Source of the DNA: a bacterium
GTDB lineage: Bacteria; Patescibacteriota; Saccharimonadia; Saccharimonadales; OMJO01
DNA length: 38,840 nt
NCBI GenBank assembly: GCA_900299395.1
Contig: OMJO01000018.1
Coordinates: forward strand, 1-38,840
Reading direction: 5' to 3'
Positions 3,985 to 38,840 of the stretch are shown one piece after another (the first letter of the stretch is position 1; every line of letters starts with the position of its first letter). The translations under genes and the position numbers were made by a program. The notes under the pieces were generated by a model. That model was not told where the DNA came from, searched no databases, and saw only the letters and a program-made list of their open reading frames with translations.

Positions 3985-5058
3985 ATGATAACAAGCCTAA
4001 GGCTACAAAATTTTCGAACCTATATTGATGATACCTTCGAGTTTAATCCCGGGGTTACTATTATCGTTGGACCCAATGCAAGTGGAAAAACAAACCTACT
4101 AGAAGCGGTCTATGTCATGGCAAGAGGAACATCCTTTCGTGTTAAAGATGTAGACCTGATACATCACAATGCTCCTTGGTGTCGCCTTGACGCCGAGGTT
4201 GATTCCGGCGCAAGGGCTATTAAACTAAAGCGATCTGAAAATGGACTAGCCGACAAGCAGGTAATAATTAATACAGAAAAATTTTCTCGTTTTCCGTCAA
4301 GCAAGACATATCCTGTCGTCCTATTTGAACCAAACCATCTGCAGTTGTTCCACCTCGGGCCCGAAGCAAGAAGAGACTATGTTGATGATTTGGCCGAACA
4401 GTTGTTCTCTGGTTACGCACAGACAAGGTCTCACTATAAGCGAGTTTTGGCTCAGCGCAACAAACTTCTCAAACTAAACCCGAAAGATATCCATCAACAG
4501 ATGTTCGTGTGGAATATCAGATTAAGTGAATTGGGTGGTCGTATTGCCGGTATACGAAATGAAACCATAGAGGAGATCAATAAAAACCTTACCGAATTAT
4601 ACGGGCAGCTATCCCATGCAAAGAAAAGTGTGACAGGAAGATATATATCAACAATCCCCATCGATCAGTATAGTAGCCAGTTGCTTCATCGGCTTGAGTC
4701 TGATGTGCCGCGCGAGATTCAACGGGGGTACACTTTGTATGGTCCTCATAGAGATGATTTTATTGTGGAGTTAGGGGATCATGACGCCCAAGAAACTGCT
4801 TCACGGGGTGAAATCAGAACCATACTACTTGCCCTCAAAATATTAGAACTAGGCTTGATAGAAAAAAAGACCGGCAAAACACCATTATTACTACTGGATG
4901 ATGTGTTTAGTGAGCTTGATGGCGTTCGGCGGCAGGCGCTTACGGAAGTGATAGCGAAACACCAGACTTTCATCACAACAACCGATGCCGACATTGTCGT
5001 CCAGCACTTCCTTGATCGGTGCTCGATTATTCCGCTTGGCAGTAAAATCTCAGCGTAG
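3985..5058 (+). CDS. recF: DNA replication/repair protein RecF
   Basis: MITSLRLQNFRTYIDDTFEFNPGVTIIVGPNASGKTNLLEAVY, ...RGEIRTILLALKILE...LLLDDVFSELD. Confidence 0.93.
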   Translation: MITSLRLQNFRTYIDDTFEFNPGVTIIVGPNASGKTNLLEAVYVMARGTSFRVKDVDLIHHNAPWCRLDAEVDSGARAIKLKRSENGLADKQVIINTEKFSRFPSSKTYPVVLFEPNHLQLFHLGPEARRDYVDDLAEQLFSGYAQTRSHYKRVLAQRNKLLKLNPKDIHQQMFVWNIRLSELGGRIAGIRNETIEEINKNLTELYGQLSHAKKSVTGRYISTIPIDQYSSQLLHRLESDVPREIQRGYTLYGPHRDDFIVELGDHDAQETASRGEIRTILLALKILELGLIEKKTGKTPLLLLDDVFSELDGVRRQALTEVIAKHQTFITTTDADIVVQHFLDRCSIIPLGSKISA

Positions 5059-6582
5059 AAAATTGGTGATGGTGTAGCCTTGGGGAGGCAAACTCAGTTT
5101 AGTAAGTTCTTGCTGAATGTCATTATTCACTTGCCGTTTTGTGGCAGGGTCGTAGTCTAGTTCGCCCGTAGCATTGGGTACCAATGCACCATAGTTTGGC
5201 GATAGGTAGATGTAGCTCCGATATACAGAAACATCATTAAGCGCTTGCGATTCGGCGAGGGCTGTAATCTTTTTATCAAGCTCATTACTTGTGTCTGCGG
5301 TGGCAGGATTGATAGCGAGCGCTATTTTTTTGCCATTCTCATTCGTGAGCGTCAACACATAACCATCAGCAGTTTTTTCTGCATCATTGAGTGAGTATGA
5401 GCCGTATCGATACTCTGCAAACCCTTCACCGTTTTTTAGATCTATCCTCAAACTATCCCCTTTTCTCACTGCTACCACTTCCTGGCCCAATGACAAAACA
5501 CTGACGACGTTATTAATATGCAGTGTTTTTTTAAGCTCGCCTGAGTCAATAGCAAACACAGACAAGCCGGTGCTATCAACGGCGCAGATATACTCACTAC
5601 AGAAACTCACTTTTTGGTAATCGTTCTTTGAGCTAAAGTGCACAGTCTCTGGAGAACTAACAATAATCTCACTTCCAGGCTTGGTGTTATTGGTAGGCTG
5701 CTTGCCATAGAGAAACACTGTTTTGTTATCTTTGGCATCCGAAGTGAGCAGGATTAAGCCCTTGCTCTTTGGAGCTGGTTGAGTCATCTTACTTGCTTTA
5801 CCTGATAGGTTTGCCAATTGGAAGCTATCTCCTTCCCCTTGTGGCATAAACACGAGACTACCTTCTGAATACAAAAGACCGTATGTCATGTTTTCGTTAA
5901 GCTCACCTACGGGTATTCGCCGTGTAACTTTCAGATTGTCCCTAAGCACATACAGTATGTGGCTTACCTGTGCATCTTTGGCTTCCTCGCCCTCATCACC
6001 AACACTTAATTGAACAAGAGCGACAGTTCCTTCCTTAGTCTGGGCCATTCCTTCAATAAGCCCCCGTTCATTATTGCTTGCCACCATTTGTGTGTAGGTA
6101 GCTTGGGTGGCTGTAGCGGGTACGTGCTGGTTAATGGCGCCGAAATCTCCCCCGCAGTTGTATGAATATAACTTTCCCGAAATAAGTTGGAAACACGAGG
6201 CTGGGTTATTACCTACGAACGTTCTTTCTCTCTCTTTCTGCATTGGTAGAACAACAGATGTTGTGCCAAAAAAACCACCCGATCTAACGATCTTAAAACC
6301 GTTCATCTCGTCTTGTCTTGCCATGATCTCAAAGTTGCCACGCTTCACGAGCCGTTTGATAGAAGCGCCACCACTGACAGTTTGTGTCTTGTTAGACTTT
6401 TGATCAGTCAATACGTATTCGTACATGCCATCCTTGCCACCACTTGCTTCAATGGTAATGAATGACATTTGACTAACCCAATACAGGGCTCCCAATACGG
6501 CCACAAGGATTAGGCCGATGATCAATCGTCGTAAAAGGCGATTCGGCTGATTGAGCGTAGTATACGTGTTGTTATCTAGCAT
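5050..6582 (-). CDS. Single-pass membrane-anchored protein with large extracytoplasmic region; last gene of the T4SS-like operon
   Basis: 510 aa; N-terminal TM LLRRLIIGLILVAVLGALYWVSQ; 7 bp overlap with the upstream gene; converges with recF (9 bp overlap). Confidence 0.65.
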   Translation of the reverse strand: MLDNNTYTTLNQPNRLLRRLIIGLILVAVLGALYWVSQMSFITIEASGGKDGMYEYVLTDQKSNKTQTVSGGASIKRLVKRGNFEIMARQDEMNGFKIVRSGGFFGTTSVVLPMQKERERTFVGNNPASCFQLISGKLYSYNCGGDFGAINQHVPATATQATYTQMVASNNERGLIEGMAQTKEGTVALVQLSVGDEGEEAKDAQVSHILYVLRDNLKVTRRIPVGELNENMTYGLLYSEGSLVFMPQGEGDSFQLANLSGKASKMTQPAPKSKGLILLTSDAKDNKTVFLYGKQPTNNTKPGSEIIVSSPETVHFSSKNDYQKVSFCSEYICAVDSTGLSVFAIDSGELKKTLHINNVVSVLSLGQEVVAVRKGDSLRIDLKNGEGFAEYRYGSYSLNDAEKTADGYVLTLTNENGKKIALAINPATADTSNELDKKITALAESQALNDVSVYRSYIYLSPNYGALVPNATGELDYDPATKRQVNNDIQQELTKLSLPPQGYTITNFLR

Positions 6583-7877: not shown

Positions 7878-10800
7878 TGTCCTGTCCCACATCTGCTTGG
7901 TGTATCAAGTGGATCCCAGTGCCAGGATTCGTTTGAATACTGTTTAATGTGATAGGTCTCGGCGTTGTTGTACAGCCATGTCCAAACAGGGCTTGAGGGG
8001 TCACGGGCACGGCCGGAGCAACTGGTTGAACTGGTCCCTTTGAGGTGTGTTCCACTGAAGTCGATAGCTAATCCCATCTGGTGTGGGGAGTACCCAGGTC
8101 GCGCAACAAAACTACCATCACAAGTGCCACCACAAAGGTCGGTCTGGTGGGCATTAGTCCTAAAGGAGCTTTCGGCGTGTAAGCCAACGCCTGCTGCGTT
8201 TGCAGCTTGCACAAGTGCAAACCAGGCCCCAGACACGCGCGAGTTTACCAGTGCCTGACCATTAGCCCCCTCGACGTACCATTTGCCCCCGGGCTGACTT
8301 TCTTCACTTGAACTTTTGAGGTTAGGAAGTGCACACAAGCGAATCATAACCTTAACCCCGTCATGATAGCCTTCCTGAGGCTGGGCGATAGGCGTGGTAC
8401 CATACGCGCACGGTACATTGGTAGAATCCGCAAACATGTCTCCTACAATATCTGTGCCTGTGTTTCCGGTGCTCGGTCCACTGCCGCCCGTTGGGGTTCC
8501 CAGTTCTTCGGCAGGAAGTAGGCTATCGTCAAAAATAGCTCCTGCACTACCCACTGCGGCATCTAATAATAGACATGGGTTTTCGCTGTTGTGTACATCC
8601 ATTCCTGTATCTGGATCAATGCTCACATCGTTTGCCCAGTCTTTATTTTTCTGGGCACAATAGCTTTCCGTCAACGTCGATGGGTCGGTATTGACTGCAG
8701 CACCATTGGGGTCGTAGCCGTATTGCGGAATACCAAACGGGTCATCCTGGCTAGCGGCGGCGACTCGGTTTGTGCCAAACATACTAAACATTTTTGAAAA
8801 CGGGTTAATAAGGCCAGCGAATGAATGTTGTATGGCGGCAGTCTGACTTATAGGCATGGCCATGGCAAGCTGCGACACCATCGAATACGAGCTGTTTGTA
8901 TCAAACATACGAGCAAAAAATGGTTGTGACTGGAATTTCATTTTACGCTGGGCTTCCTGTTCGGACTGAATCTGCATAACGGTTGCGGTGGATAGTCGTT
9001 TACCCCCTAGTCCATATTGGGCGTAGCTTGACCCCGCGGCATCTGCTCCACCGGCCAACATATTAAAGCTACGAGCACCACTCATGTTGTCGGATATAGG
9101 TGATGGGATAAAGTAGGTGGCGACGGCCGTAAAGACTTCCTGGGCTTTTGCTCCCATCCATTCCTTCAATGGATCGAGAATGAATCCAAATGGTTTGAGT
9201 AGGAGGTCAATCGCACTGCCAGCTAGACCCTGGGCTTTGTCCCATACCCAGCCAGCTGAGTTATTCCATTGGTCGGCAAGGAATTTTAGTGGTGCCAGAG
9301 GGCCATTATTGAACAGATTAGATAATTCGGTGAGGAAGTTACTGACCAATAAACTTTCCTCGGGACAGATTAACTTTCCGACAGGGATAAGGCTACCATT
9401 GTCACAGGTGTAGTGCCCCGCTTCACTCGCTGGCGCAGCGGCAAACGCACTGGGCAAGAGTGAATCAAATGCTGTTTTCTGTGATGAACTGCCCATGAGA
9501 TTACTGTAGAGGGGGCTGTTCTCGGCCGATTCACCGTTTTTTGTATTATTCCCTAGCATGTTCACAAAAGATCCAGTCAAATCGGCTGTGGTATCGCCTG
9601 CCTTCTGCTCATCAGCGTGAGATCGGGCCAACATATAGTAACTAACCATCGCTGTCGAATTGAGCACAAATGCCCAGCGTTTAATCTTTGGTCCGGCACT
9701 GGCTGTTGTCTCTATAATGTTTGCAATGGTATGTATCCAACCAACGACGGGTACTGTTTTAGAGGCCGCATCGGCAATTTCTTTATTCAGAACAGTTTCA
9801 ATAATGTAGTTCATTAGCCCATTCTCGGATATTTTTATTGAGGCATCCGCTATTTTTTGGACAGTATCCTCGGTATATTGTTGGCCGCGCTTTTCCAGAT
9901 AATCACGGACCTGTTGCTCAAGTTTGTCTCGACGCTCATTGTCGTTACCGTCTGCCGAAGAGGGGGCATCATTACAGCCGCTCGACACAATACAAGAAAA
10001 AGCAAAGCCTAACATATCACTATGTGGCTCCACGACTCGACGAATAACCTGTAGCTTCGCTGCCTCTTGTTTTTTGTCTGCCCAGTCCGCTATTTTGTCT
10101 CTTCCATCGCACGCAAACATACAGCGTTTGATGCCATACTTTCGTTCGAGCAAATGGCCCACCTTGAAGCGGTACATTACCCGTCTAAACTTTGTCTCTC
10201 CATCCAATGCCTCAGTAATCTTGGCGCGTATGGTTGCCCGAGATGCCTGCGGCATATCATTGATATCAAAAATTGGTATTTGGCCAGGGGCCGACTTTAG
10301 TACGGCTTCACCAACCCCCGGAGCTTTTAGATAATAGTTTGTGCCTCGCTTTTCAAACTCAATGCCGTATTTGGTGGCGAGCTTATTCTCTAATTTGTCC
10401 TCACGCCACGCGCGGAACAATTTCTCCACCTTCCCTTCACCGACAATGTTGTCGACACAGTCTTTATTGATACGGGTGCTTGTACAACCAGGTTTGTTCA
10501 TGGCAGTCAGGACGTGTTCACTGACATACTTTTGTAAAAGCTTCTGTGTGTATTTCTCGACTGCTGATTCGGAGGTGGAAAAGAATTTGTTTTGCAGGTT
10601 CTCAACAATATGCACCAGTTTTAACGGTATTAGCGACATCATAATCGTGACGATAATACTAACAACACCGGCTGTAATGCCCCCACCTAAGAGTACTCGC
10701 CTGCGGTTTAGGCCATTAAGGGTGGACTCGAAACGTCGAATACCAGTTGCTTCTTCTTGTTTGAAGCCTGGCCCAATTTGGTCTAGGGCGTTATCTAGTT

Positions 10801-11002
10801 GGCTGGCTTCGGTGGAGTCACCCTTTGAGTTTGGGCTTTCAGCACCTTCCTGTTCTGCCGACTGCAGGGCATCAGAATCCATTGCCGGCGCACTATAATC
10901 ACGCTCAAGATCAGCTATTTCCTTTGCGCGATCATCATCGGACATATCCAAGTCGTCATAGGAGCCTGGTTTTTTGACTTTTTCTTCGTCATAGACAGCC
11001 AC
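7874..11002 (-). CDS. Large membrane protein with C-terminal VanY-type D-alanyl-D-alanine carboxypeptidase domain, T4SS-associated
   Basis: 1042 aa; TM RVLLGGGITAGVVSIIVTIMMSLIPL; C-terminal SPHQMGLAIDFSGTH and ESWHWDP match the LAS/VanY SxHxxGxAxD...HW zinc-site pattern. Confidence 0.75.
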   Translation of the reverse strand: MAVYDEEKVKKPGSYDDLDMSDDDRAKEIADLERDYSAPAMDSDALQSAEQEGAESPNSKGDSTEASQLDNALDQIGPGFKQEEATGIRRFESTLNGLNRRRVLLGGGITAGVVSIIVTIMMSLIPLKLVHIVENLQNKFFSTSESAVEKYTQKLLQKYVSEHVLTAMNKPGCTSTRINKDCVDNIVGEGKVEKLFRAWREDKLENKLATKYGIEFEKRGTNYYLKAPGVGEAVLKSAPGQIPIFDINDMPQASRATIRAKITEALDGETKFRRVMYRFKVGHLLERKYGIKRCMFACDGRDKIADWADKKQEAAKLQVIRRVVEPHSDMLGFAFSCIVSSGCNDAPSSADGNDNERRDKLEQQVRDYLEKRGQQYTEDTVQKIADASIKISENGLMNYIIETVLNKEIADAASKTVPVVGWIHTIANIIETTASAGPKIKRWAFVLNSTAMVSYYMLARSHADEQKAGDTTADLTGSFVNMLGNNTKNGESAENSPLYSNLMGSSSQKTAFDSLLPSAFAAAPASEAGHYTCDNGSLIPVGKLICPEESLLVSNFLTELSNLFNNGPLAPLKFLADQWNNSAGWVWDKAQGLAGSAIDLLLKPFGFILDPLKEWMGAKAQEVFTAVATYFIPSPISDNMSGARSFNMLAGGADAAGSSYAQYGLGGKRLSTATVMQIQSEQEAQRKMKFQSQPFFARMFDTNSSYSMVSQLAMAMPISQTAAIQHSFAGLINPFSKMFSMFGTNRVAAASQDDPFGIPQYGYDPNGAAVNTDPSTLTESYCAQKNKDWANDVSIDPDTGMDVHNSENPCLLLDAAVGSAGAIFDDSLLPAEELGTPTGGSGPSTGNTGTDIVGDMFADSTNVPCAYGTTPIAQPQEGYHDGVKVMIRLCALPNLKSSSEESQPGGKWYVEGANGQALVNSRVSGAWFALVQAANAAGVGLHAESSFRTNAHQTDLCGGTCDGSFVARPGYSPHQMGLAIDFSGTHLKGTSSTSCSGRARDPSSPVWTWLYNNAETYHIKQYSNESWHWDPLDTPSRCGTGQ

Positions 11003-11014
11003 GTTCAGCTATCC

Positions 11015-12934
11015 TCATCTCCCCGGGGTGAGCCGGTTAGTTAGGTCTATGGTGCCCTGCGGCTGCGCCACGCCACCTTGCTGGATTTGCTGAACTTGCT
11101 GTGGGTTGGTAGTGATAAGCTGCATTTCGCTCGGGCTGGCAGTAACTTGAATGTGTACATGGTTTTGCCCGGCAAAGAACAAGCCTTGGCCGACCGGGAA
11201 CTGGCTCAAACGCTTCTTTTCCTCACTGGTAAGTTTGAAAACATCTGCCAGCACATCAACGGCAGAAGAAGATTGCTTAAGGAGAATTTGCATGCTGGCG
11301 TTAGCCACGATCGCCCGGCCCATACGGCTACCCATAAAGTCCTCGACATCCTGAGTGATGGTAGTAATGCCAAGGTTGTATTTACGGGCGCGTTTAGCCA
11401 GGCTGAAGAGGAAGTTGGCAGAGTCTTCATACTTCATGAGCTGCCAGGCTTCGTCCACCACCAGAATACGCTTCTTTTGGTCGCTCTTTGTCTTGTTCCA
11501 GATGAAGTTCAGTACGATGTACATGGCTACCGGGCGAAGTTCGTCCTCGAGGTCGCGTACGTTAAAGACCACCAACGGATTGTTGATGTCGATGTTACTT
11601 TGCTGCGAGAAGATGCCGGCGAATGTCCCAGAGGTATATTTGCGGAGTCTTTGAGCTAGTTGCGGACCGGTGCCACCCATATGCAGCAGTGTGTCGTACA
11701 GGTCGTTGATTGTCGGCGGTGGTGATTTATGGGTGAGGGGGTCATTCGTGATACCCGCCTTGGCGTAGGTTTCGATAAGTGCAGCGTCAAGATCTGCCTC
11801 TTCGACTGGCGTGAGCGCCGGAGCAATGATGCCCGCTTGTCCACCACTCGCAGCCATCTGGGCTTGTGCGCCACCCATCATCAAACGAAGTAGCCCGTGG
11901 AGCGTAATGAGGTTACTGCGCAATGCGTTGTCCGCTTCTTCGGTGTCTACAACCTGTGGTAGATCAAACGGGTTGATGCGCGTGTTGGAGTTTAGGCTTA
12001 GGCGTACATACGCACCACCAACGGCATCTGCCATGCGTTGGTACTCATTCTCGGGGTCGATAATGAATATCTCGGTACCAAACATGAGGCTACGAAGGGC
12101 CTCGAGTTTAACCGTGAATGATTTACCGGCACCAGACTTAGCAAACACCACCGAGTTGCCGTTTTCTAGACTAAACCGGTCAAAAATAACGAGCCCAGAG
12201 TTATGCATGTTGATGCCGTACAAGATGCCATTGTCCTGGCTGAGGTCTGCCGAGGTAAATGGGAAGCTCGTGCTAAGGGCACCGGTGTTCATGTTGCGTC
12301 GGATTTGCAGCTGGTCGCTAAATTGTGGAACGGTGCTGTTGAGTCCTTGTTCTTGCTGAGAGGTAGCCGGCTTAGAGTAGACCAACTGTTGACCTAGCAT
12401 AGACTCAACTTTGTGTGCAATAAACTCAAGCTCATCCGTGGAAGAGGCGTAGATAGTAAAGTACAAACCAAAACGGAAAAATCGTTCCTCTCCGACTTGT
12501 AGCTTGTCGCGCATTTCTTCAGCGTCAATGATCGCTGCCTGCTTACCTGGGTCACGCACTCGGCCTTTTTCTGCGTCTATTTGAATGCCAGCTTCGAGTT
12601 GACCCACCTTTTTGCGCAGGTTTTCTAAAACAACCTGGCTCTCCACAGGGTAGATAAACATAGATAAGTCCATCACTTCATCGATGTTAACCATGCTACT
12701 CAGCCAGCCGGTAAATACCTGCCGCGGATAGCCGTAGACGTAGTATGTCCGTGCGTAACGTGTGCCAATCTGGAAATGAGTGCCAGAAAACTCAATTGAA
12801 CTCGGCGAGATAAAGTCACGGAGTGCGGTGATACCCTTTTGGAAGGCGAGATTTACTTCTTGCTGCTCGCGTATTTGCTGCTGTTGGGCAAGTGCTACTG
12901 GATCAAGTTGTTCTTTCTTCTTGCGGCCTATCAT
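11015..12934 (-). CDS. virB4: VirB4/TraC-like type IV secretion ATPase
   Basis: Walker A FAKSGAGKSFTVKLEALRS, IIDPENEYQRMADAVGG, Walker B RILVVDEAWQLMKYEDSANFLFSLAKRARKYNLGITTITQDVEDF. Confidence 0.88.
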   Translation of the reverse strand: MIGRKKKEQLDPVALAQQQQIREQQEVNLAFQKGITALRDFISPSSIEFSGTHFQIGTRYARTYYVYGYPRQVFTGWLSSMVNIDEVMDLSMFIYPVESQVVLENLRKKVGQLEAGIQIDAEKGRVRDPGKQAAIIDAEEMRDKLQVGEERFFRFGLYFTIYASSTDELEFIAHKVESMLGQQLVYSKPATSQQEQGLNSTVPQFSDQLQIRRNMNTGALSTSFPFTSADLSQDNGILYGINMHNSGLVIFDRFSLENGNSVVFAKSGAGKSFTVKLEALRSLMFGTEIFIIDPENEYQRMADAVGGAYVRLSLNSNTRINPFDLPQVVDTEEADNALRSNLITLHGLLRLMMGGAQAQMAASGGQAGIIAPALTPVEEADLDAALIETYAKAGITNDPLTHKSPPPTINDLYDTLLHMGGTGPQLAQRLRKYTSGTFAGIFSQQSNIDINNPLVVFNVRDLEDELRPVAMYIVLNFIWNKTKSDQKKRILVVDEAWQLMKYEDSANFLFSLAKRARKYNLGITTITQDVEDFMGSRMGRAIVANASMQILLKQSSSAVDVLADVFKLTSEEKKRLSQFPVGQGLFFAGQNHVHIQVTASPSEMQLITTNPQQVQQIQQGGVAQPQGTIDLTNRLTPGR

Positions 12935-15037: not shown

Positions 15038-18000
15038 TTACCTATCCCGTCTGTTAAGGCTTTGTTCTGGGACGCCAGTGCCAGGCTCACTACCAGGGGC
15101 TTTGTACTCTCCGGCGAACATATCAGCGACTTGTACAAAAGCATTGGCCTCTTCCATAACACGTCCTGGTGCACCAGCGCCAATTGCTCTGCCGCCTCCA
15201 CCCGTTCGTGTAGTGCCACCAGTCGCCCCTGCCGCACCACGGATTGGTACCTCAACCTCAGTGCCGTAGTCATCGGTTACTACAGGAGCAGGAATGGGTG
15301 CGCCACCTTCCCCGGCCGGTATTACCGAGCCACCACCAAATGAGGCGGATTTTGTAGCATGCGCGATTCGGCTTGCACGCTGCAGTATCTCCGCAGCCCT
15401 GTCTCGAGATTCATCGAGTGCTTGCTTTCTGGCGGCCCTCCAAGCATCTTCTCCGGCTTTATCCGCCGCAAACTCACCTCGTTGAGGTAATGCGACCCCT
15501 GTAATGTCACCATCAACAATCTGCTTCGCTTTACGGACCTCTTCAGACATGCTGGTCCATGTATCAGCATTTTGCATGAGCATCTGGTAGTTGCCCTGCT
15601 TCTCGTCTATTTCTCGCATGAGGGTTAGGCCGTCTAGCTCCATACCCTTACCGGCGCCCTTCCAGCCGTAGTGTTTCCATTGGCGGTTTGCGTTTTGCTT
15701 CTGGAAACCGGCACCTTTCCATACGCCTTGCGCTTGCTTGTCATTCATGGCGAAGCCGCCTGATCCTTCACCTAGGCCACCGTCAACAAGCCGGCCGTAG
15801 TTGCTAACCAGGTAATCTTGTTCTTCTTGGGTGGCGGCTTTGTCCATTTCGTGACCAAGTGACCACTGCAGGGCCATCTGGTTGCCACCCCACCTAGAAT
15901 GTGCCGCGTCGACGGACGCCTCCTTTACCCAAGCACCACCTAGTGTACGGAATTCACGAGCCCCGGTTTCCTTATCTATCCTCCAGTGTTTACCCTCACC
16001 GTCAGCTTGGGCGAGTGCCCATGCTTTGTTGACGGTCAGTGCCCGTTGTTCGGTATCATCACCATTATTGTTCTGTAGATCTTGTAACTTATTCTCAGCT
16101 TCGCGTTGGGCAGCAATGGCTTCTTCGAGGTTATAGCCACCCACGCGGGCACGTGCAAACCGCGCAGCTGCTCCCCGGATCCCACGCTGAGATGCTGCGG
16201 TTTCAAGTCCACGGTACTGACGATCACGAGCAGACAGAGTGCGGGCTCTCCAGTCTTTCTTTGCGTACTCTTTGCGTTTTTCAAACATGCCGTTGAGCTT
16301 ACCGGCGCCACCAGTTATTGCGGCGTGGATACTACCAATAGCGCCTCCGGCGAACTTGAAGGCAAACGGAATCATGAGTAGGGGCAAGAACTGCAATACA
16401 AAGGCGACCACGGCTGCTAGAACATTATTGATCTGCCCATCAACGCCTGCGACACCGTTAGCCTTCAGGATAGTAACCGACATGATGTCGGCAATTGCGA
16501 AGATAATAATGACAATTGGGTAAACCAGTAGTGTTTTAAAGAGGAGTTCCCACCACTTTTTAAAGTACCGCTCGGTATTTGGTAAACAGTAAAGCGCAAA
16601 GGCAAACGGACTAATGATGATCAGGAACAATATGAGACCGCGCCGAATAACAAGGGTCACAAACACTCCAATAATGCTGAGAATAACAGGAAGAAGAGTG
16701 AGTAAACCAACAAACAGCCCTGCCTGAATGGCTGCACCACCACCAAGGACAAGAGCGCCAAGCACCCCTGCAATACCGGATGCGCCAAGCATGAGTCCTA
16801 ATACCCCCAGCCCAATACCCCCAAGTGACTGGCCAATACTCAGATGGAAGCCCGTGCCTATACTACTCCTAATCGGCGAGATCATCAGCTGTCCGATACC
16901 CTTGCCAACGATGTTAGTGACGTCCACCATAAAGGCAACAATGTATACGGATAGGTTGATCAAGATGGCTGCCGTCAGGATGCGCGGCAGTACCTTTTTG
17001 GCAGTGTAGGCATCAATGAGTCCACCGCCGATTGTCTGTCCGAAAACAATGACGATCATCGCTATTACCAACAGCACGTTACCGTAGATGCGGAAGCCCG
17101 ACCATATTTGATAGGTAGGGTCGCTACTATCGGTACTCACGGGGGATGACTGCAGGAACGGGGTAATAAACTCGTTAAACAGCCAGTCCGAGAGGTCGGC
17201 AATGCCATTAAAGACTGGGCAGAGGATCCACGATAATGGGTTGTTCCAGTTTTTTTCACACGTTACGTTTTGGTCGCCACTGCCAGTGTTGCCAACGCCG
17301 GGAGTGCCGCCACCCGCACCTGGTGTTTTGGTGGCGTTTGCAACAGAACCCAGAGGGTAAGACTTGGCGGCCACTTTGCTGTTACTGCTGTCGTAATCAA
17401 CATTTTGCTCTTGCGAGGGCCGCGTACCCCAGAGCTCGCAGCTATTTGGGAAAACAGGCTGCAATATGTCATGGTCGGGGTTGGTTATGTCACTTAGCCC
17501 ATCTCGCCCATTTTGCTTGTTGTCCTCCATACGATAAATTTTGTGCGACGTAAAGTCAGTGCTGGCAATAATGTAATCACCGCAACCACCTCCTGATGTC
17601 CTCACAAAGAGCTGTTTGCTTTGGCTTGCAACACGCGTTTGAGCAAAAATCCAGCCACTATCACCATCTACGCGCCGGATAGTTTGGCTATCGAGCCACT
17701 CATACCATATGTCGACATTACCTTTAGCTATGTGGGTTGATTGAGCTAATACGAGTGGGTCAATCTGAGTGTTTCTACATTGTCCAACCCCACCGGGCTT
17801 GTAGTCGATGTCAACGGAGTATGGGGTTATCTTGCCGTTTACGAAGTCGGCACCAATGTTGTAGGAAGCATAGAAACTAACATGACCATAACAATCACTG
17901 CCTTGAACTGCATAATCGGGCTCCTTGTCGCCGATGTTTTGATCAAAAAACGTGTATTTTGTGCCACCTATTGTCACTTCTAAATGAGCGTGGTCAATAA

Positions 18001-18275: not shown

Positions 18276-19052
18276 ATGGTAAAAACATCAAAACTTACGC
18301 AAAAGATACTCATCGCCCTCTCATTTTTGCTGGGACTATTTATTGTAGGCATGCCCCTCTCTGCTGCTGCTATACCCGGTCGCGATGATTACAGTAAGAA
18401 CTTTTTATATAAGCCGGATCCAAAATGTCTGACTGGGTCAAAAGGAGCAGACTTTAATGTGGTGCACGGCCGCAATGATATGACGGTGTACGCTTGTATT
18501 CGTGTCCGTGGTGATAACGTCGGCTATTCTATAAGCCCTTTGCCCCCACCCAACCAAGTAATGCAAAACAATGCGTGCGGCGAGACGTTCATGAGTGGCT
18601 CAAGTGTTGAGGAGTACACCGTGAATGGTGGTGGATTTGGACTGCTTTGTGTCATTGTGACAGATTCCACCAAGTGGGACATGACCGACTACAAAACACA
18701 GAACGAGAATCGCACAGGTAGTTATGTAACTGGTGATGCTCAAGGAAGTGGCGATACATGTGGCGAGGGTGATAGTGCTGTTCACACCTCCATCAACATC
18801 GGGTGTCGTGGGCAAGGAAATGGCATCTTGGATCTTACCTTCGCGCTGATTCGATTCCTCTCCATCGGAGTTGGCATCGTGGTGATAGGGTCAATTGTGG
18901 TGGCGGGCATTCAGTACACAGCGTCGCGGGGAGACCCCAGCGCTACTGCCAAGGCTTTGGCGCGGATTAACTCGACGGTGATCGCTCTCATCATTTACAT
19001 CTTTAGCTATGCTATATTGAACTGGCTTATTCCAGCGGGGATATTCAAATGA
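18276..19052 (+). CDS. TrbC/VirB2-like two-TM protein with N-terminal Cys-containing ectodomain
   Basis: Signal peptide, ~150 aa ectodomain with six Cys, then FALIRFLSIGVGIVVIGSIVVAGIQYTASRGDPSATAKALARINSTVIALIIYIFSYAILNWL. Confidence 0.65.
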   Translation: MVKTSKLTQKILIALSFLLGLFIVGMPLSAAAIPGRDDYSKNFLYKPDPKCLTGSKGADFNVVHGRNDMTVYACIRVRGDNVGYSISPLPPPNQVMQNNACGETFMSGSSVEEYTVNGGGFGLLCVIVTDSTKWDMTDYKTQNENRTGSYVTGDAQGSGDTCGEGDSAVHTSINIGCRGQGNGILDLTFALIRFLSIGVGIVVIGSIVVAGIQYTASRGDPSATAKALARINSTVIALIIYIFSYAILNWLIPAGIFK

Positions 19053-22482: not shown

Positions 22483-22530
22483 ATGCAGGTCATTTTGTTT
22501 TGCACCCAGCACTACTGGTACAATACGCTT

Positions 22531-23130
22531 ATGCAATCAGGACAAAGTGAGCCGCAAAAACCAGAAGCTGGTTGGGTGTTTCGCCCGGGCGCTGACGCCG
22601 CCGCGCCGAGCGCAACTGCACGGGCTTATACAGAAAAAACCATGGAGCAGCAGTCGGTGAAAGCTACAGGGGGCAGCAGCGTATCGTGGACAGCGCAAGA
22701 ATTTGTGGAACATGATCGAAGCGCTAGCTGGTACCTTATATTGGGTATTGGCGCGGTAGTTTTGGCCGGTATTGTGCTGGTGCTGACTGGCGACAAAATC
22801 ACGGTCGGCATGATCCTTATTGTCGCGTTGATATTTGGAAGCTTTGCCCGCAAGAAACCTCGTACCCTCGATTACAGTCTAGATAATGAAGGAATTACAC
22901 TAGGGAGTAAAAAATACTCGTACAATCTCTTTAAGTCATTCTCTGTCAACGAAGAAGGACCGCTGCACTCACTGATACTCATGCCACTCAAGCGTTTTAT
23001 GCCACTAATTAGCGTGTATTACCCGAGCGACAACGAAGAAAAGATCTTACAAAAGATAGCGAACTTTCTGCCGTTCGAGGAACACAAACAGGATTTTGTC
23101 GATAAAATGATGAACAAAATTCGCTTCTAA
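22531..23130 (+). CDS. Conserved-type membrane protein of unknown function (two central TM segments)
   Basis: 199 aa from ATG 22531; YLILGIGAVVLAGIVLVLTGDKITVGMILIVALIFGSFA then soluble C-terminus; TACAAT 6 nt upstream of ATG. Confidence 0.65.
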   Translation: MQSGQSEPQKPEAGWVFRPGADAAAPSATARAYTEKTMEQQSVKATGGSSVSWTAQEFVEHDRSASWYLILGIGAVVLAGIVLVLTGDKITVGMILIVALIFGSFARKKPRTLDYSLDNEGITLGSKKYSYNLFKSFSVNEEGPLHSLILMPLKRFMPLISVYYPSDNEEKILQKIANFLPFEEHKQDFVDKMMNKIRF

Positions 23131-23136
23131 ATCATT

Positions 23137-23559
23137 AGCGAAGATAACCAACCGTCGTGCCGCCCGCGCTGACACCTTTAGCCACGGTGCGAAAGGGAGC
23201 AGCCAAGGTGCCCGGGTTGGCATCGCTGCCGTTTGTAGCTACATACTTTACATCTGCAGGATGGTTTGGGTCTGGTATGGCATACGCAGTGCCATAGTCA
23301 GAATGTCGATAGTTTCATACGGGCCATTCCCGGCCCTGGCGGCAGTAAACCGAACATAACTGTTATTCGACGCAGTCGGGTCTCCAGTAATTTTTGCAGC
23401 GTTTCCGCTAAGCGTACCGTTCTCGGCCTCGACGCTTACCGAGACCGTCGCTGCTCGCGTTAGTAAAAGCGCAATCGTGCCACATATCGCAAAGAGAACT
23501 ACAAATGTTGCGACAGTAGTAGGTGTATTTTTGAAAGTTTTACGGAGCTTTTTTATCAT
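23137..23559 (-). pseudogene. Remnant of a secreted CBM6/35-like plus right-handed beta-helix protein, frameshifted and truncated
   Basis: Frame 1: signal/TM then VSVEAENGTLSGNAAKITGDPTASNNSYVRFTA; after ~23300 a different frame reads YGTAYAIPDPNHPADVKYVATNGSDANPGTLAAPFRTVAKGVSAGGTTVGYLR*. Confidence 0.65.
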
Positions 23560-23673: not shown

Positions 23674-23889
23674 CTATTGTTGCTCGCTTATCATCGTGTC
23701 ATTTTGCAGAGAATTTGGTGCAGGTGGTGTCGCGGCTTTTGTGATTAAAAGCGCAATCGTGCCAAAAATAGCAAACATTATCGTAAATATTAGAATTCGT
23801 ACTGTCGGATTACTGATAAAATCATGTAGCCGACGAGATGGCTGACCAATATTTTTCACTGTATTACCCTCATTTGTTATTGTGAGCAT
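23674..23889 (-). CDS. Short single-TM protein sharing its leader with the neighbouring pseudogene (possible second remnant)
   Basis: ATG 23889; ILIFTIMFAIFGTIALLITKAATPPAPN vs ATFVVLFAICGTIALLLTRAATVSVS in 23248-23559. Confidence 0.4.
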   Translation of the reverse strand: MLTITNEGNTVKNIGQPSRRLHDFISNPTVRILIFTIMFAIFGTIALLITKAATPPAPNSLQNDTMISEQQ

Positions 23890-23924
23890 CGCATTCCCGC
23901 CGAAGATTGTCAATCTATAAAGCA

Positions 23925-23953
23925 TTGACAAAAATAAACATAAGTGTTAAAAT
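23925..23953 (+). promoter_or_regulatory. Consensus sigma70-type promoter upstream of the GC-rich small secreted ORF
   Basis: TTGACA 23925-23930, 17 nt spacer, TAAAAT 23948-23953. Confidence 0.7.
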
Positions 23954-24001
23954 AATCCCCTCTTCCATTGAGATGGAACGAGTCACACAAGGAACCTTCC
24001 C

Positions 24002-24247
24002 ATGAACAAGCTCCTGCGTACCATCGTCGTCGCCCTCGGCCTCGGCGCGTTCACCCTCACCCCTGCCCTCGTGGCGCCGGCTTCGGCCGCGGAGGTGAAC
24101 TTCGGTCACTGCATCAGCAGCATCGACCCCAGCCTCAAGCCCTACCAGGCCCCCGGCCAGAACGGCACCGGCCCGCTCACCATCGTGAACGGCAAGGTCC
24201 ACATCCCCGGCGGCTTCAACGGCGCCCAGGGCTGCGCGAAGAGCTAG
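24002..24247 (+). CDS. Small secreted protein with atypically GC-rich codons
   Basis: MNKLLRTIVVALGLGAFTLTPALVAPASAAEVNFGHCISSIDPSLKPYQAPGQNGTGPLTIVNGKVHIPGGFNGAQGCAKS; AAGGAA RBS; 77 of 81 codons end in G or C by my count. Confidence 0.75.
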   Translation: MNKLLRTIVVALGLGAFTLTPALVAPASAAEVNFGHCISSIDPSLKPYQAPGQNGTGPLTIVNGKVHIPGGFNGAQGCAKS

Positions 24248-24322
24248 CGCACGCACCACCCTTTCCGAATCCGGAATCATGGTGGTCGCTGTCGACTATC
24301 ACCGAGGTTCGGAACCTTGTTC

Positions 24323-24405
24323 GCCGCGGAGATGTGGAGAGTGACGTGGATGACCCCCTTATCGGTCAACCCTTCACTCTCCACTCTCTCGCGGCTTTTT
24401 CTTTT
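24323..24405 (+). terminator. Long-stem terminator-like hairpin after the small secreted ORF
   Basis: GCCGCG-GAGA-(t)-GTGGAGAGTGA ... TCACTCTCCAC-TCTC-(t)-CGCGGC followed by TTTTTCTTTT; about 21 bp with two single-nt bulges. Confidence 0.7.
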
Positions 24406-24416
24406 GTAAGAGGGAT

Positions 24417-24464
24417 TGTACCAAGTAAAAAAGCCGTCTCAAGACGGCTCCTTTACTTGGTACA
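24417..24464 (-). terminator. Near-perfect 48-nt hairpin at the 3' end of tRNA-Arg, sharing the tRNA 3' terminus
   Basis: TGTACCAAGTAAA-AA-AGCCGTCT-CA-AGACGGCT-CC-TTTACTTGGTACA. Confidence 0.65.
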
Positions 24465-24534
24465 CCCGACAGGATTCGAACCTACGACCTTCGGCTCCGC
24501 AAGCCGACGCTCTATCCAGCTGAGCTACGGGTGC
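24458..24534 (-). tRNA. tRNA-Arg(GCG), CCA encoded
   Basis: GCACCCGTAGCTCAGCTGGATAGAGCGTCGGCTTGCGGAGCCGAAGGTCGTAGGTTCGAATCCTGTCGGGTGTACCA; loop TTGCGGA. Confidence 0.92.
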
Positions 24535-38603: not shown

Positions 38604-38840
38604 ATGACAACTCCAGCACCTACGATGCTCCGCTCCGGCGGAACATCACCCGTCACCGGCAGGACCGAACGCCAGATCGAAGAGGCTTACATGGCTCTCG
38701 AGCGGCGCTTGACCGACGACGACATCGCCGCAGTGCTGCTGCCGGTGAAGGACACCAAGACCACGCGCACCGAGCGTGTGGGAACGGCCCGGTACAAGGC
38801 TGGTTCCAAGCGGGCCCGCATCGCGGAGCTCAGCGACGAC
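38604..38840 (+). CDS. GC-rich ORF of unknown function, truncated by window end
   Basis: GGGAGGT RBS then ATG 38604: MTTPAPTMLRSGGTSPVTGRTERQIEEAYMALERRLTDDDIAAVLLPVKDTKTTRTERVGTARYKAGSKRARIAELSDD..., open to end. Confidence 0.6.
   Translation, partial: MTTPAPTMLRSGGTSPVTGRTERQIEEAYMALERRLTDDDIAAVLLPVKDTKTTRTERVGTARYKAGSKRARIAELSDD

What the first reader, a model, noticed from the sequence alone, without database searches (positions are those of the whole stretch)
23925..24405. Self-contained GC-rich cassette encoding an 81-aa secreted protein
Seen: an AT-rich consensus promoter (TTGACA-17-TAAAAT), RBS, then an ORF in which only 4 of 81 codons end in A/T (CGT, CCT, GCT, GGT), very unlike neighbours, followed by a ~21-bp-stem terminator. 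The protein has an actinobacterial-looking signal peptide (…APASA-A) and a ~52-aa mature part with two Cys. Inference: possible acquisition from an actinobacterial host and a candidate secreted effector, bacteriocin-like peptide or host mimic.
Basis: partly seen in the sequence, partly recalled or inferred. Interest (0 to 1): 0.75.

Follow-up and report, generated by a model that had tools for sequence, protein, structure and literature searches.

The report
Recently acquired GC-rich secreted mini-protein gene
A tiny parasitic-type bacterium (Saccharibacteria) carries a foreign-looking, GC-rich gene for a small secreted protein with two cysteines; the gene is real, belongs to a new and very rare protein family, and is the most extreme of about nine GC-rich genes in this genome that look like recent imports, but its donor and its function are not shown.

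Summary
ORF 24002-24247 lies behind an 11-of-12 sigma-70-like promoter and ahead of a strong hairpin and T-run. Four of 80 codons after the ATG end in A/T; 43 +- 4 are expected from this genome's usage. Ribosomal and EF-Tu genes are not GC-rich at third positions, so high expression does not explain it. The frame is a real protein: one homologue exists in another Saccharibacteria family (Prado157 MAG), 49% identical over the mature part, both cysteines kept, GC3 0.45. No other homologue turned up in about 400 genomes of the order, 395 of the class and 294 of the phylum, nor in phages, plasmids, viral contigs, Pfam, NCBIfam or PHROGs. The cassette is not a lone oddity: 397 kb of its genome holds about eight more ORFs with GC3 0.68-0.88, one at the window's right end. 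Codon choice fits high-GC Actinobacteria best among 11 sets, by a modest margin. Best reading: a recent lateral acquisition of a Sec-exported, probably disulfide-closed mini-protein acting outside the cell, plausibly at the host interface. The actinobacterial donor is likely but unproven; effector, bacteriocin or mimic function is untested.

The parts
23925..23953 (+). sigma-70-like promoter, TTGACA-17-TAAAAT with TG before the -10; lies in AT-rich (33-38% GC) sequence
23963..23978 (+). small leader hairpin TTCCAT-TGAG-ATGGAA in the predicted 5' leader
   Evidence: sequence and fold
23989..23993 (+). Shine-Dalgarno-like AAGGA, 8 nt before ATG
   Evidence: sequence
24002..24247 (+). ORF of 81 aa, GC3 0.951, secreted mini-protein of a new two-member family
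   Evidence: homologue
24002..24088 (+). predicted Sec signal peptide, 29 aa ending APASA
   Evidence: read by eye from the sequence; type I signal peptidase present in the genome
24089..24244 (+). predicted mature protein, 52 aa, conserved motifs NFGxCxSxI, APGQxxTGP, PGGFxGxxGCxK; Cys37 and Cys78 conserved
   Evidence: alignment
24248..24322 (+). GC-rich, structured 3' stretch between stop codon and terminator
24323..24405 (+). long hairpin (22-nt arms, imperfect) and T-rich tail, intrinsic-terminator-like
23674..23931 (-). neighbouring short ORF with Saccharibacteria-type membrane anchor (FGTIALLITKAAT), probable truncated surface-protein gene
23248..23559 (-). second short anchor ORF; shares a 47-nt, 81% identical direct repeat with the first
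24458..24534 (-). tRNA-Arg(gcg) whose 3' end and own terminator face the cassette
38604..38840 (+). another GC-rich ORF (GC3 0.78, open at the contig end); not part of the cassette, same compositional class

Best explanation
A recent lateral acquisition from a high-GC bacterium, most likely an actinobacterium and possibly the epibiont's own host, of a single gene for a small secreted protein. It now lies next to tRNA-Arg(gcg) behind a strong AT-rich promoter that reads like recipient sequence and ends in its own hairpin terminator. The 81-aa product is exported by Sec, cut after ASA by type I signal peptidase, and its two cysteines (37 and 78) are joined, with the genome's VKOR homologue as the likely oxidant, to give a roughly 52-aa one-disulfide mini-protein released at or near the cell surface. 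It acts outside the cell, most probably at the contact with the host bacterium. Shown: the ORF, its composition, homology in a second Saccharibacteria family, rarity, other GC-rich ORFs in the genome, presence of VKOR and signal peptidase. Inferred: transfer, donor, export, disulfide, place of action.
For: GC3 0.951 versus 0.463 +- 0.052; 4 A/T-ending codons versus 43 +- 4 expected; ribosomal, EF-Tu and EF-G genes at GC3 0.34-0.48, so not translational selection. Of 11 GC-rich codon tables the three best are high-GC actinobacterial sets, and own usage is about 47 nats worse. Homologue in G084/Prado157, 49% identity over the mature part, E 1.8e-11, GC3 0.45, own downstream hairpin. Absent from all other genomes searched. 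About eight further ORFs with GC3 0.68-0.88 in 397 kb of the same genome, one with a weak LPXTG-anchor match and one a fatty acid desaturase. VKOR and signal peptidase I present. A route exists: Saccharibacteria are naturally competent and grow on Actinobacteria (PMC10633639); some of their predicted phages are also targeted by actinobacterial spacers (PMC10746230).
Against: No donor gene found. The GTDB scans used exact short peptides, so only close relatives would appear; Actinobacteria could not be searched by profile. The codon margin over Thermus and Alphaproteobacteria is only 4-12 nats and may partly reflect overall GC. The mini-protein has no known fold; the AlphaFold model was useless (pLDDT 45). 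No evidence of expression or secretion.
Confidence: 0.5

Rival explanations
1. Recent acquisition from a high-GC source that is not the actinobacterial host: a phage, a plasmid, or another high-GC bacterium of the habitat; the gene may be passing cargo without a role in host contact.
For: Thermus and alphaproteobacterial codon tables are not far behind. Other GC-rich ORFs in the genome have no clear actinobacterial match; the desaturase's best plasmid hits are Burkholderiales at 37-39% identity.
Against: No match in phage, plasmid or viral collections for the cassette or, where tested, for other GC-rich ORFs. A diverged homologue with near-native third-position composition shows that the gene has been kept at least once.
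Confidence: 0.27
2. A native Saccharibacteria accessory gene family, spread within the phylum, whose copy here came from an unsampled high-GC Saccharibacteria lineage.
For: The only homologue found is in Saccharibacteria.
Against: Present in 2 of roughly 400 order genomes. Loci sampled from relatives that contain GC islands have a median GC of about 0.43-0.52, so a 69% GC source within the group is not in evidence.
Confidence: 0.13
3. Assembly or binning chimera: actinobacterial DNA wrongly joined into the contig.
For: Reads are not available; the genome is a 38-contig draft and two other GC-rich ORFs lie at contig ends.
Against: A single 0.4-kb insert with native sequence on both sides is an unusual form for a chimera; several other GC-rich ORFs also lie inside contigs with native flanks; the estimated contamination is 0.01; a homologue exists in another Saccharibacteria genome.
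Confidence: 0.05
4. A bacteriocin-like antimicrobial peptide.
For: Small, apparently secreted, two conserved cysteines.
Against: No immunity, modification, protease or dedicated export gene beside it: the neighbours are truncated anchor ORFs and tRNAs; ordinary Sec-type signal peptide; no family match.
Confidence: 0.05

Closest known systems
Homologue in Patescibacteria bacterium isolate Prado157 (JALOQO010000030.1; G084:C21:6929-7108, minus strand)
   Same: 49% identical mature part, both cysteines, NFGxC, APGQxxTGP and PGGFxGxxGC motifs, ends just after the last Cys, single gene with its own downstream hairpin
   Different: GC3 0.45 in a 36% GC contig; neighbours are YtxH-like and other unrelated genes, no tRNA beside it; its signal peptide is cut by the contig end
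Chaplins and other small two-cysteine secreted proteins of Actinobacteria (recalled from memory, not searched)
   Same: short, Sec-secreted, two cysteines, GC-rich coding
   Different: cysteine spacing is about 40 residues here against a short loop in chaplins; no profile match in Pfam or NCBIfam
Other GC-rich ORFs of the same genome (C3 LPXTG-type surface protein, C7, C8, C15 desaturase, C19, window right end)
   Same: GC3 0.68-0.88 in a 0.47 background, mostly single genes, several apparently membrane or envelope proteins
   Different: no sequence similarity noted; lower GC3; their upstream promoter matches are weaker (5-8 of 12, except the window-end ORF at 10)

Membership tests
Horizontally acquired gene | composition far outside the recipient's range | tested here: met
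Horizontally acquired gene | patchy distribution among relatives | tested here: met
   1 homologue in about 400 order, 395 class and 294 phylum genomes, overlapping samples
Horizontally acquired gene | tree or best hit placing it inside a donor clade | not testable with these tools
   no donor homologue found; Actinobacteria could not be profile-searched ('of' accepts only G handles)
Actinobacterial origin | codon choice best explained by actinobacterial usage | tested here: inconclusive
   three high-GC actinobacterial sets rank first, margin 4-8 nats over Thermus; Arthrobacter and Mycobacterium sets rank mid to low
Secreted protein (Sec/SPase I) | n-, h- and c-region with AxA site; peptidase in genome | tested here: inconclusive
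   read by eye; SPase I PF10502 present; no predictor run
Bacteriocin | adjacent immunity/export/modification genes or known family | tested here: not met
Mobile gene cassette / integrative element | recombination site, flanking repeats or integrase | tested here: not met
   no direct repeat between the tRNA end and the far side, no integrase in the interval

The most novel reading that the evidence does not exclude
This and the other GC-rich ORFs were taken up from the epibiont's own actinobacterial host, and the cassette is a host-type secreted mini-protein put under a strong epibiont promoter and used at the contact surface: host-to-epibiont gene theft turned back on the host.
Probability: 0.2. 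Interest if true: 0.65.

Novelty: new member of a known kind. Interest (0 to 1): 0.4.

Why it matters
Hosts of most environmental Saccharibacteria are unknown. A set of recent, unameliorated GC-rich imports in one genome is a record of who the cell exchanges DNA with, so tracing these genes to donors could name the host. The mini-protein itself is a compact candidate for an extracellular factor, in a lineage where few secreted proteins have been tested.

Tried and rejected
Translational selection as the cause of GC3: rejected, ribosomal and EF-Tu genes are at 0.34-0.48. Weak profile hits in G538, G382, G079 and G064: rejected, they overlap other open frames or have stops. DNA-level hits in plasmids and phages: short chance matches of GC-rich sequence. 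AlphaFold2 with two sequences: pLDDT 45, not used for a fold search. I first read the relatives' synteny as a clean 1.1-kb insertion between the 215-aa gene and tRNA-Arg; withdrawn, because in most relatives tRNA-Arg lies on the same strand as that gene whereas here it is on the opposite strand, so the region is rearranged and insertion borders cannot be fixed. The tRNA-Arg hotspot idea: only a few of about 40 loci carry GC-rich islands nearby, too few. A plasmid of a plant pathogen (pCM1) was fetched for a codon table and then left out of the analysis.

Full report
What is there. At 23925-24405 there is a promoter (TTGACA-17-TAAAAT, TG before the -10), a short leader with a small hairpin, AAGGA 8 nt before ATG 24002, an 81-codon ORF to 24247, and a structured GC-rich 3' stretch ending in a hairpin with 22-nt arms and a T-rich tail. 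The 3' stretch folds 6.9 standard deviations better than shuffles. The promoter's 11/12 score is matched upstream of only 2 of 143 native ORFs.

Is the ORF real? Other frames in this GC-rich stretch are also open (198 aa on +, 121 aa on -), so an open frame alone is weak evidence. Three things single out the 81-aa frame: its GC by codon position is 0.62/0.51/0.95, the pattern of a true high-GC gene, while the others lack it; it has a ribosome-binding site; and its translation has a homologue in G084, 49% identical over residues 28-80, E 1.8e-11. The homologue sits at a contig end with its signal peptide cut, ends just after the second cysteine, and is followed by its own hairpin. It keeps both cysteines and the motifs NFGxCxSxI, APGQxxTGP and PGGFxGxxGCxK although its GC3 is 0.45. 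Conservation of the protein across such different codon composition means selection on the protein.

Is the composition anomalous? GC3 is 0.951; 146 ORFs of at least 100 aa from the first 160 kb sampled average 0.463, sd 0.052, maximum 0.595. Ribosomal proteins, EF-Tu and EF-G lie at 0.34-0.48, so codon optimisation for expression does not explain it. Drawing codons for the same protein from own usage gave 43 +- 4 A/T-ending codons and never fewer than 23 in 20,000 trials; 4 are observed.

It is not alone. With 397 kb of the genome sampled (397 ORFs of at least 80 aa), a separate group of ORFs appears at GC3 0.68-0.88: C19 122 aa, C3 419 aa (weak LPXTG-anchor match), C8 120 and 122 aa, C7 285 and 134 aa, C15 248 aa (fatty acid desaturase) and 263 aa (M50 peptidase), plus 79+ aa at the window's own right end. 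The next ORF below is at 0.63. The window-end ORF was not found in 395 other order genomes. So the cassette is the most extreme of about nine probable recent imports. In other Saccharibacteria, G016 has a comparable GC-rich ORF (GC3 0.92) about 1.4 kb from tRNA-Arg, and G035 has GC-rich recombinase-like ORFs beside tRNA-Ser.

Where from? Scored for synonymous codon choice against 11 GC-rich reference sets taken from plasmid-collection records, the cassette fits Kitasatospora, Nocardia and Curtobacterium best (-51.7, -52.5, -55.4), then Thermus (-59.7), Sinorhizobium and Azospirillum (about -62); its own genome scores -99.3. This favours an actinobacterium, but modestly: two actinobacterial sets with lower GC rank low, so overall GC contributes. 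The sets come from plasmids or large replicons and were gene-called by script. No donor sequence was found. The limits are real: the GTDB scans look for exact short peptides and reach only close relatives; phage and plasmid tblastn was negative; the profile could be run only on Patescibacteria. A route is established by others: Saccharibacteria are naturally competent and grow on Actinobacteria (PMC10633639), and some of their predicted phages are also targeted by actinobacterial CRISPR spacers (PMC10746230). A patescibacterial T4SS related to monoderm conjugation machinery is described (PMC12102498); the window has a T4SS-pilin match at 18276-19052.

Context. The cassette lies between two short minus-strand ORFs with the Saccharibacteria-type anchor motif (23248-23559, 23674-23931), which share a 47-nt repeat and look like truncated surface-protein genes, and tRNA-Arg(gcg). 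In relatives a homologue of the 215-aa gene (22483-23130) lies close to tRNA-Arg, but usually with tRNA-Arg on that gene's strand rather than facing it. The interval is therefore rearranged and specific to this lineage among those compared, and I do not claim an exact insertion site. No flanking repeat or integrase marks it as a mobile unit.

How it probably works. The N-terminus reads as a Sec signal peptide with an ASA-A cut site, giving a 52-residue protein with cysteines at mature positions 8 and 49, so a disulfide would close almost the whole chain. The genome encodes type I signal peptidase and VKOR. That it acts outside the cell follows from export; that it acts on the host is inference from the epibiotic lifestyle. 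A bacteriocin is less likely because nothing that would confer immunity or process it lies nearby. No structure could be predicted.

Verdict. A real, probably recently acquired gene for a secreted mini-protein of a new, very rare family: an interesting lead, ordinary in kind (lateral transfer of an accessory gene), with donor and function open.

Noticed in passing
window 38604-38840 (+), contig end: Second GC-rich ORF in the window (GC3 0.78, MTTPAPTML...), behind an AT-rich leader with TTGATT-16-TATAAT about 215 nt upstream of its ATG; not found in 395 other order genomes, no phage match.
   Followed up: partly
L314:10765-12024 (-) (G000:C3): GC-rich (GC3 0.86) 419-aa secreted-looking protein with a weak LPXTG cell-wall anchor match in the same genome; no plasmid match.
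   Followed up: partly
L317:11791-13222 (G000:C7), L318:984-1346 and 5029-5397 (G000:C8), L323:4827-5618 and 17214-17960 (G000:C15), L326:8819-9187 (G000:C19): Further ORFs with GC3 0.68-0.88, including a fatty acid desaturase and an M50 peptidase; probable recent imports.
   Followed up: partly
L044:4191-4610 and 5776-5800 (G016:C1): GC-rich single ORF (123-139 aa, GC3 about 0.9) near tRNA-Arg(gcg) in another Saccharibacteria family, and an apparent partial duplicate of the tRNA-Arg 3' end about 190 bp from the real one, as an attachment-site duplication would leave.
   Followed up: no
L297:263-2296 and 8741-11077 (G035:C5): GC-rich islands (0.64-0.65 against 0.52) abutting tRNA-Ser genes; one ORF reads like a serine recombinase (VLYLRVSTSRQ), suggesting tRNA-targeted integrative elements in Saccharibacteria.
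   Followed up: no
window 23447-23493 and 23729-23775: 47-nt direct repeat, 81% identical, shared by the two short anchor ORFs: likely tandem remnants of surface-protein genes.
   Followed up: partly
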